DNA of 21,860 nucleotides from Actinomycetes bacterium (lineage in GTDB: Bacteria > Actinomycetota > Acidimicrobiia > Acidimicrobiales > RAAP-2): NCBI GenBank assembly GCA_021799915.1, contig JAJYZN010000011.1:1-21860 (forward strand), in the 5' to 3' direction. Shown here in pieces: positions 15,215 to 16,071 of the stretch. Below the pieces are notes generated by a model. That model was not told the DNA's origin. It searched no databases and saw only the letters and a list, made by a program, of their open reading frames with translations. The translations under genes were made by a program, and so were the position numbers. Within the stretch, counting starts at the first letter, position 1; every line of letters begins with the position of its first letter.

Positions 15215-16071
15215 TCAGCCGAACCTTCGCTAGCGTCCTGCACCCCGGGCACCCCTGGTACTCCGGGCACCCCTGGTACTCCGGGCACTCCTGGCACCCC
15301 TGGCACCCCTGGCACCCCTGGCACCCCTGGCACCCCTGGTACTCCGGGCACTCCTGGCACCCCTGGCACCCCTGGCACCCCTGGCACGCCGGGCACCCCG
15401 GGCACCCCTGGCACCCCTGGCCACAGTGCCTCTGGCACTTCCATCCCGGCAGGTGCACCCCACTGATTGCGGTAGGTCACCTCGTGGAGCGGTCGGCGGC
15501 GCGCGACACCCCAGCGTCCGGTGGGATAGCCAAAGCTGACGCAGCCCGCCATCTGCCATCCCTCGTCGCTCGGTACCCCCAGCACCGAGAGCGTCTCAGG
15601 AAGAGAGAACACGCCGAGGACGACCGTGAGGCAGCTCCCGATACCTTCGGCCCGCGCGGCCAACATCGCGCTCCAGACTGCCGGGTAGATCGAACCGCCG
15701 GTCGGATCGTGCTGGCAGAAGGCGAACAGGTAGAGCGGCACCTCTTCGAAGTGGTCGGCCAGCCACTGGGCCGATCGGCGGACTTTGAGGAACTGGGCAG
15801 TCTCGTCGGTGTCTGGGTGAGCGGCAGCGGCCGCCACCTGGGGCGCGTAGATGGTCGACCAAAGCTTCGCGATCGCGTCGCGGTAGAGCGGTCCCAGCCT
15901 GGCTTTCACGGCAGGGTCGTCGACGAGGAGGAAGCGCCAGTTCTGCTGGTTGCCGCCGCTCGGCGCCCTGATGGCTGCATCGAGGATCCGGGCCTGGGCA
16001 TCGTGGGGAACTGGATCGGGACGGACGCGACGCATGGCGCGCGTGGTGTAGAGCGCTTCGAGCAGGTCCAC
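15211..16071 (-). CDS. Nitroreductase-family flavoprotein with a C-terminal (Pro-Gly-Val)20 collagen-like tail
   Basis: 286 residues from GTG 16071. Residues 1-205 are an FMN nitroreductase fold: TTRAMRRVRPDPVP (9-22) with the phosphate-binding Arg pair, IRAPSGGNQQNWRFLLV (34-50), and MLAARAEGIGSCLTVVLG (136-153), all typical. Expected reaction is NAD(P)H-dependent reduction of an unknown nitro, quinone or other acceptor in the cytoplasm. Residues 218-277 are 20 uninterrupted Pro-Gly-Val triplets, followed by QDASEGSAE. There is no stop between domain and tail, so they form one protein. The nitroreductase domain has no signal peptide. A run of nine G occupies the ribosome-binding position, seven bases before the GTG. 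The gene lies 28 bases after nitronate monooxygenase and its TGA overlaps the GH5 GTG. The tail is not a normal part of this family. Confidence 0.88.
   Translation of the reverse strand: MDLLEALYTTRAMRRVRPDPVPHDAQARILDAAIRAPSGGNQQNWRFLLVDDPAVKARLGPLYRDAIAKLWSTIYAPQVAAAAAHPDTDETAQFLKVRRSAQWLADHFEEVPLYLFAFCQHDPTGGSIYPAVWSAMLAARAEGIGSCLTVVLGVFSLPETLSVLGVPSDEGWQMAGCVSFGYPTGRWGVARRRPLHEVTYRNQWGAPAGMEVPEALWPGVPGVPGVPGVPGVPGVPGVPGVPGVPGVPGVPGVPGVPGVPGVPGVPGVPGVPGVPGVQDASEGSAE
15241..15420 (-). repeat. 180-base minisatellite: 20 nonamers encoding (Pro-Gly-Val)20
   Basis: Twenty contiguous 9-base units. In plus-strand wording: CACCCCTGG 12 times, TACTCCGGG 3, CACTCCTGG 2, CACCCCGGG 2, CACGCCGGG 1. 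All differences fall on third codon positions of the nitroreductase frame, so every unit encodes Pro-Gly-Val. A higher-order copy is present: 15268-15321 is identical to 15331-15384. Confidence 0.95.

What the first reader, a model, noticed from the sequence alone, without database searches (positions are those of the whole stretch)
15241..15420. Nitroreductase carrying an uninterrupted (Pro-Gly-Val)20 collagen-like tail
An apparently complete FMN nitroreductase domain (residues 1-217) runs without a stop into exactly 20 Pro-Gly-Val triplets and a short acidic end. Gly at every third residue with Pro before it is the Gly-X-Y pattern of collagen. Bacterial collagen-like segments are normally on surface or spore proteins; one on a cytoplasmic flavoenzyme is unexpected. 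It could trimerise or tether the enzyme, form a flexible elastin-like phase, or be a harmless expansion.
Basis: partly seen in the sequence, partly recalled or inferred. Interest (0 to 1): 0.75.

Follow-up and report, generated by a model that had tools for sequence, protein, structure and literature searches.

The report
Collagen-like tail from repeat expansion
A bacterial nitroreductase gene carries a run of 20 Pro-Gly-Val triplets at its end, most likely because a nine-base DNA repeat expanded in frame in a stretch of the gene that matters little, which gives a snapshot of how collagen-like protein sequence can arise from scratch.

Summary
A 286-residue ORF (15211-16071, minus strand) runs from a nitroreductase domain (PF00881) straight into (Pro-Gly-Val)20 and a nine-residue acidic end; PF01391 (collagen) is above cut-off. 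The tail is lineage-specific: 0 of 120 listed homologues (of 7764) and 0 of 80 genome loci have it, and a syntenic relative (L002) ends six residues after the conserved Leu-Trp. At DNA level it is a 9-bp minisatellite. A second 9-bp array opens the overlapping GH5 gene and a 12-bp array lies inside that gene; L002 lacks all three. In related genomes similar short-period arrays sit mostly at gene ends (11 of 14, my classification), three of them read as C-terminal tails. All 23 neighbouring-unit differences fall on third codon positions, so the tail is probably translated and its peptide held; the test is small and cannot tell the strands apart. The AlphaFold monomer gives the tail no structure; trimerisation is unsupported and untested. 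Best reading: an in-frame minisatellite expansion in a dispensable C-terminus, translated as a flexible collagen/elastin-like tail; a specific function is possible but unshown.

The parts
15211..16071 (-). Nitroreductase-family CDS with tail, 286 aa, GTG start
   Evidence: ORF list; PF00881 72 bits; start aligns with homologues
15421..16071 (-). Conserved nitroreductase domain, residues 1-217, ending at Leu-Trp
   Evidence: Alignment A1: L216 and W217 invariant in 24 sequences
15241..15420 (-). 9-bp minisatellite, 20 units, coding (Pro-Gly-Val)20
   Evidence: PF01391 40.4 bits
15211..15240 (-). Non-repetitive acidic C-terminal end QDASEGSAE and stop
15211..15214 (-). GTGA overlap of nitroreductase stop and GH5 start codon as listed
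15177..15209 (-). Second 9-bp array, 3.7 perfect copies, first codons of the GH5 ORF (MKGVRGVRGVRGVL)
   Evidence: TRF; absent from syntenic relative L002
12932..15214 (-). GH5 cellulase/endoglycoceramidase-like gene, lipoprotein-like N-terminus (by eye)
   Evidence: PF00150 70 bits; NF051847 82.2 bits, below its cut-off of 700
13191..13252 (-). 12-bp array, 5.2 perfect copies, (Gly-Gly-Ser-Ser)n linker in GH5
   Evidence: TRF; missing from L002 GH5
16100..17215 (-). Nitronate monooxygenase-like gene upstream, synteny marker
   Evidence: PF03060 157.5 bits; 90% identical in L002
17380..17817 (-). B12-binding protein gene, synteny marker
   Evidence: PF02310 91.1 bits; present in L002
17793..19421 (-). 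Methylmalonyl-CoA mutase-like gene, synteny marker
   Evidence: PF01642 690 bits; present in L002

Best explanation
A lineage-specific, in-frame expansion of a 9-bp GC-rich minisatellite in the last, length-variable codons of a nitroreductase gene, at its junction with the next gene of the cluster. SHOWN: the array; its absence from the relatives inspected, including a fully syntenic one; similar arrays, mostly at gene ends, in related genomes; variation restricted to third codon positions. INFERRED: (1) the seed was the gene's own 3' end (codons V-P-E-A-L-W-P-G-V; GTG CCA GAG matches the repeat GTG CCA GGG in 8 of 9 bases); (2) slippage or unequal exchange amplified it, since a nine-base unit never breaks frame and this one has no stop; (3) the original acidic C-terminus was pushed outward, from about 229 to 286 residues; (4) the tail is translated as a flexible, disordered Pro-Gly-Val polymer and tolerated because this enzyme's C-terminus beyond Leu-Trp is unconserved. 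The core should still work as an ordinary flavoenzyme; any tethering or self-association by the tail is secondary and unshown.
For: 0 of 120 listed homologues (of 7764 with E<=0.001) have a tail; they are 218-235 aa and end 1-18 residues after the PLW-like motif. 0 of 80 genome loci (80 of 459 found were kept) have one (217-234 aa), and 0 of 30 loci from a search of 100 relatives, many of which are the same genes. L002 keeps the order mutase, B12 protein, nitronate monooxygenase, nitroreductase, GH5, hydrolase and ends PLWTAGDTA*. Three short-period arrays lie within 2.3 kb in the window and all are missing from L002. BLAST with the array found 18 places in 14 of 100 relatives; 14 of the 18 are arrays by TRF; 11 of those 14 lie at gene ends by ORF and Pfam reading, including C-terminal tails of an apparent ABC ATPase (L149), a transhydrogenase subunit (L152) and an F420H2-quinone-reductase-like frame (L156). 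23 of 23 neighbouring-unit differences are at third codon positions. AlphaFold: residues 223-284 below pLDDT 50.
Against: Synonymous-only variation (at least 5 changes by my count; (1/3)^5 = 0.004, or 0.012 if any frame counts) is more than a purely neutral tail would give and hints at selection on the peptide. Another coding tail, L149, shows no such pattern (4 of 15 third-position differences). The 11-of-14 count is my own post hoc classification; L150 and L161 lie inside genes and L157 is unclear; 4 of 18 BLAST places are not TRF arrays. The BLAST query was this array, so only similar units could be found. The window's own genome is not held, so the repeat content of this organism is unknown. 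Copy number could be an assembly artefact.
Confidence: 0.72

Rival explanations
1. A selected functional tail: the Pro-Gly-Val polymer associates (collagen-like trimer or elastin-like condensate) and clusters or tethers the enzyme. On a dimeric core, trimerising tails would cross-link dimers into a network.
For: Gly at every third position without a break for 20 triplets and PF01391 above cut-off. All 23 neighbouring-unit differences synonymous, as if the peptide were held.
Against: Single-lineage tail, missing in the 120 homologues and 80 loci inspected. Model disordered (one chain only, so it cannot test trimers). No charged residues in the array; bacterial collagens are said to lack hydroxyproline and to rely on high Pro content or ion pairs (PMC4565658, passages). 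Prolyl hydroxylation was not looked for here.
Confidence: 0.18
2. The array acts as DNA or RNA, for example as a structured or G-quadruplex element controlling the downstream overlapping GH5 gene or as a replacement for a terminator; translation is incidental.
For: G-quadruplex-type motifs in both 9-bp arrays, 2 of 7 such motifs in the window, with 2 more in the 12-bp array. The relative L002 has a strong GC hairpin followed by TTAGTTTG at the same junction. Arrays sit mostly at gene ends in relatives.
Against: RNA folding of the array is only modestly better than shuffles (z -1.83, 6 of 200 shuffles as good). No Rfam match in 14900-16200. Sibling arrays without a quadruplex motif inside the array: 7 of 14 BLAST-found and 3 of 3 others. 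Third-position-only variation is not expected of a DNA element, though pairing of CC with GG could also hold positions 1, 2, 4 and 5.
Confidence: 0.15
3. Assembly or sequencing artefact: the array is real but mis-sized, or a stop or frameshift before it was lost.
For: 182-bp array of unknown sequencing origin; tandem repeats are known to cause assembly errors (PMC6868369, passages). No reads are held.
Against: Frame kept through 20 units of five types; a non-repetitive end follows and overlaps an intact GH5 ORF by GTGA; third-position-only differences would not come from random errors.
Confidence: 0.08
4. Recruitment of a pre-existing collagen-like domain from a surface protein of the same lineage.
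For: Collagen-like sequences are common in relatives: 138 of 297 genomes above the PF01391 cut-off.
Against: The 30 loci fetched (of many more matches) carry mixed Gly-X-Y runs, none a Pro-Gly-Val homopolymer (by eye). The codons and unit structure point to local amplification.
Confidence: 0.03

Closest known systems
Nitroreductase family PF00881 (BluB / NfnB / FbiB C-domain / iodotyrosine deiodinase fold)
   Same: 72 bits over residues 10-182; best fold matches 2isj BluB, 2wzv NfnB, 4xom FbiB, all prob 1.00; sequence matches in the PDB include 4dn2, 1nox and BluB
   Different: Below the NCBIfam equivalog cut-offs (BluB 53.2 of 150 bits), so no precise function; carries 69 residues after Leu-Trp where 120 listed homologues have 1-18
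Bacterial collagen-like proteins (PF01391; e.g. Bucl of Burkholderia)
   Same: Uninterrupted Gly-X-Y; one triplet type dominating and in-gene repeat accumulation are described for Bucl proteins (PMC4565658, passages)
   Different: Sits on a nitroreductase; no leader peptide seen by eye; no charged triplets; not shown to fold. PMC4565658 lists Bucl2 and Bucl5 without signal sequence or TM, so lack of a signal is not unique
Bacterial VNTRs / minisatellites
   Same: Short GC-rich unit, head-to-tail copies, unit variants, lineage-restricted
   Different: Copy-number polymorphism not tested; unit length a multiple of three and inside a gene's 3' end
P0142, UPF0176/rhodanese protein with a Gly-Val-X tail
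   Same: Enzyme-type protein with C-terminal RGVQGVEGVPGVPGVPGVQ...; the only one of 120 listed relatives, itself included, with a run of four or more Gly-x-x there
   Different: Relatives named by a source are Chitinophagaceae, Puia or Bacteroidetes, so an independent event; tail less regular (PF01391 26.6 bits, just under the 27.2 cut-off)
Elastin-like polypeptides
   Same: Pro-Gly turns with Val (resemblance recalled, no call)
   Different: Three-residue repeat, not the VPGXG five-residue repeat (recalled); no phase test

Membership tests
Nitroreductase family (PF00881) | Profile match above the gathering score over most of the domain | tested here: met
   72 bits, cut-off 23.5, profile 4-167 of 167
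Nitroreductase family (PF00881) | Nitroreductase fold | tested here: met
   Foldseek to 2isj, 2wzv, 4xom, prob 1.00, TM by target 0.57-0.60
Nitroreductase family (PF00881) | FMN binding, homodimer, NAD(P)H-dependent reduction | not testable with these tools
   Needs protein
Collagen-like proteins (PF01391) | Uninterrupted Gly-X-Y run scoring above cut-off | tested here: met
   40.4 bits, cut-off 27.2; 20 triplets
Collagen-like proteins (PF01391) | Triple helix | tested here: inconclusive
   AlphaFold monomer disordered; trimer not modelled
Collagen-like proteins (PF01391) | Secretion or surface anchoring, usual for bacterial members | tested here: inconclusive
   By eye no hydrophobic leader, N-terminus as in homologues; no signal predictor was run
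Bacterial minisatellite / VNTR | Head-to-tail copies of a short unit beyond chance | tested here: met
   20.2 copies of 9 bp, score 259
Bacterial minisatellite / VNTR | Copy-number variation between strains | not testable with these tools
   No other genome of this species was found
Elastin-like polypeptide | VPGXG pentapeptide repeat (definition recalled) | tested here: not met
   Repeat is a tripeptide

The most novel reading that the evidence does not exclude
Gene-end 9-bp minisatellites in this actinobacterial lineage are a source of new collagen/elastin-like protein sequence. Arrays just outside stop codons, arrays inside C-terminal tails, and this 20-unit Pro-Gly-Val tail held by purifying selection are successive stages; the nitroreductase tail has already gained a role, for example cross-linking dimeric enzymes through tail association.
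Probability: 0.2. Interest if true: 0.75.

Novelty: new variant of a known kind. Interest (0 to 1): 0.48.

Why it matters
Whether bacterial collagen-like sequences come from horizontal transfer or from repeat growth inside each gene has been posed as a question (PMC4565658, passages seen). Here a syntenic relative without the array, sibling arrays in non-coding positions and a codon-position test make the second route visible and testable at one locus. It also shows how a collagen Pfam hit on an enzyme can arise from a DNA repeat and should not by itself be read as a surface or structural role.

Tried and rejected
Plasmid records: 36 with a match, all below 60% identity, none covering 80% of the query; 20 of 36 were listed. 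Recruited collagen domain: disfavoured on repeat structure. Rfam, 14900-16200: nothing. RNA structure of the array: weak. A tailed nitroreductase homologue: none among the 120 listed or the 80 loci; the other 7644 scored relatives and 379 loci were not seen. The nearest thing is L037, which ends LWPGTPGSGE. Seed idea (the gene's own 3' end): only mild support; 6 of 120 homologues read VPGxLW, 8 read LWPG, 1 both. The + strand ORF 15143-15466 (Pro-Gly-Thr repeats) shares the same third positions, so the codon test cannot exclude it; nothing beyond one search was done on it. L157 was left unclassified.

Papers: the nine searches listed no title about a collagen-tailed nitroreductase or gene-end 9-bp arrays in Acidimicrobiia; two searches returned nothing. 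The library is open-access only, lists were capped at 8-15 of up to 1,636 papers, and I saw only listings and starts of abstracts, except passages of PMC7230257, PMC12871928, PMC6868369 and PMC4565658. I do not claim that it is not in print.

Full report
OBSERVATION. The minus-strand ORF 15211-16071 (286 aa, GTG start) holds an uninterrupted nitroreductase domain followed by exactly 20 Pro-Gly-Val triplets (residues 218-277, + strand 15241-15420) and QDASEGSAE. Pfam gives PF00881 at 10-182 and PF01391 at 219-276, both over cut-off. TRF finds 20.2 copies of a 9-bp unit, score 259, the top score for arrays of period 15 or less when the window is pooled with 80 related loci. The start of the ORF aligns with the start of homologues, and conservation stops at Leu216-Trp217.

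THE TAIL IS LINEAGE-SPECIFIC. A search with residues 1-217 scored 7764 relatives at E<=0.001; the 120 listed were read and all end without a tail (218-235 aa). In genome contigs, 459 relatives were found and the best 80 kept; all 80 lack it (217-234 aa). Thirty loci from a search of 100 relatives of G001, many of them the same genes, also lack it. The best single comparison is L002 (JAJYWF010000033.1, an Actinomycetes MAG): same order over six genes, 74-79% DNA identity in the five long blocks. There the nitroreductase is 223 aa and ends PLWTAGDTA*, followed by a 111-nt gap with a perfect 29-bp duplication and a strong hairpin before GH5. In the window the array and the GTGA overlap occupy this place.

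THE REPEAT IS A DNA MINISATELLITE. Units: CCA GGG GTG (12), CCC GGA GTA (3), CCC GGG GTG (2), CCA GGA GTG (2), CCC GGC GTG (1). The codons are not those the neighbouring genes favour: CCA is 14 of 20 prolines against 10.7% of 391 prolines in 12 window ORFs, and CCG (44.5% there) and GTC (45.8% there) are absent. That fits amplification of a local seed. Two more short-period arrays lie next door: 3.7 perfect copies of another 9-bp unit at the first codons of the overlapping GH5 ORF (15177-15209), and 5.2 perfect 12-bp copies coding Gly-Gly-Ser-Ser inside it (13191-13252). Both are missing from L002.

IS THE TAIL TRANSLATED? All 23 differences between neighbouring units fall on third codon positions of the Pro-Gly-Val frame. 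These are not independent; by my count the five unit types need at least five changes, so the chance under equal rates is (1/3)^5 = 0.004, or 0.012 if any frame would have counted. This supports translation and some constraint on the peptide. Limits: the opposite strand's Pro-Gly-Thr frame has the same third positions, and base pairing of CC with GG could hold some sites. Comparison arrays, third-position shares: 4 of 15 in the coding tail L149, 7 of 10 in the coding L150, 13 of 36 in L142 (acetyltransferase frame, first units not repeat), 9 of 18 in L154; 5 of 10 and 7 of 15 in the non-coding L151 and L163, where the phase is arbitrary; L148 has period 8 and is not comparable. So the window's pattern is not a general property of such arrays, nor of coding ones.

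SIBLING ARRAYS IN RELATIVES. A DNA query of the array found 18 places in 14 of 100 relatives of G001. Fourteen are tandem arrays by TRF; L155, L158, L159 and L162 are not. By ORF reading and Pfam, 11 of the 14 lie at gene ends. Just 3' of a gene: L147 (27 nt after the stop of a Na/H exchanger), L151 (12 nt after an enoyl-CoA hydratase), L153 (6 nt after a molybdopterin-binding protein). Between genes or 5' of a gene: L146 (MMPL), L148 (TetR; period 8; start codon not fixed), L154 (after metK, named by eye; before priA), L160 (branched-chain permease/ATPase), L163 (citrate synthase). In C-terminal tails: L149 (SLEDVFLGLTRG then SVPGAPSVPGV..., read as an ABC ATPase end from memory, because Pfam found nothing in 53 residues; the next gene is a weak ABC-2 permease match, 26.3 bits against a cut-off of 27), L152 (transhydrogenase PNTB_4TM, 121.7 bits), L156 (end of an F420H2 quinone reductase, 24.2 bits against 22; the first half is not in this frame). 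L150 and L161 are inside genes, L157 is unclear. With 25-35% of sequence counted as gene end, 11 of 14 has P between 4e-5 and 1e-3; in the window itself the share that is intergenic or within 60, 100 or 150 nt of a gene end is 0.14, 0.21 and 0.28 on approximate gene calls. This is post hoc. Three further arrays met by other routes also lie at gene ends: L145 (12 nt after the stop of a TOBE-domain gene), L142 (between a TsaB/TsaD-family and a GNAT gene) and L028 (abutting the stop of a polyketide-cyclase-like gene). The transhydrogenase tail is itself variable: 26 of 28 loci showed the motif, and their tails differ in length and sequence.

COLLAGEN-LIKE PROTEINS OF THE RELATIVES ARE DIFFERENT. 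PF01391 is over its cut-off in 138 of 297 relatives. The 30 loci fetched show mixed Gly-X-Y runs. By eye, a hydrophobic leader or membrane segment is visible before the run in 15 of 30; 6 are cut by the contig start; in 7 the start was not printed; 2 (L113, L128) show no leader. L136 carries its run at the C-terminus. None is a Pro-Gly-Val homopolymer; no Pfam scan was run on them. A protein search with the tail gave 71 hits; among them are enzyme-type proteins with comparable short runs: P0142 (UPF0176/rhodanese, C-terminal), P0168 (named 3-hydroxyisobutyrate dehydrogenase-like, C-terminal, probably partial) and P0172 (DUF3025, internal). P0142 is the only one of 120 listed relatives with such a run. 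So Pro-Gly-Val-like runs on unrelated enzymes appear independently and seem rare.

STRUCTURE AND FUNCTION. AlphaFold with 48 sequences: mean pLDDT 76.8, pTM 0.69; residues 223-284 below 50. Nearest solved folds are BluB, NfnB, FbiB and iodotyrosine deiodinase. Members of this fold are homodimers (recalled), so a trimerising tail would cross-link dimers rather than simply trimerise the enzyme. Hydroxyproline is said not to be available to bacteria, and charged residues that help bacterial collagens are absent from the array (PMC4565658, passages). A flexible disordered tail is the simplest reading.

RELATION TO WHAT IS KNOWN. Short tandem repeats are known to favour protein ends (PMC7230257, abstract and passages). 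In-gene accumulation of Gly-X-Y triplets has been proposed for Burkholderia collagen-like proteins, some without signal sequence (PMC4565658, passages). Tandem repeats are prone to assembly error (PMC6868369, passages). What is added here is a single locus with a syntenic relative lacking the array, sibling arrays outside and inside genes, and a codon-position signal. I rate it a new variant of a known kind.

Noticed in passing
   Followed up: partly
   Followed up: partly
   Followed up: partly
L037, nitroreductase C-terminus: This relative ends LWPGTPGSGE, two Pro-Gly steps at the place where the window's array begins; the only hint of a Pro-Gly repeat among the 80 loci.
   Followed up: no
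window 15177-15209: The GH5 ORF begins inside a G-rich 9-bp array that offers several in-frame GTG codons, so its true start is uncertain.
   Followed up: no
L002 5673-5783: Junction of nitroreductase and GH5 in the relative holds a perfect 29-bp duplication and a strong GC hairpin followed by TTAGTTTG, terminator-like.
   Followed up: no
window 12932-15214: GH5 protein matches the endoglycoceramidase model NF051847 at 82.2 bits, far below its cut-off of 700; substrate unknown.
   Followed up: no
   Followed up: no
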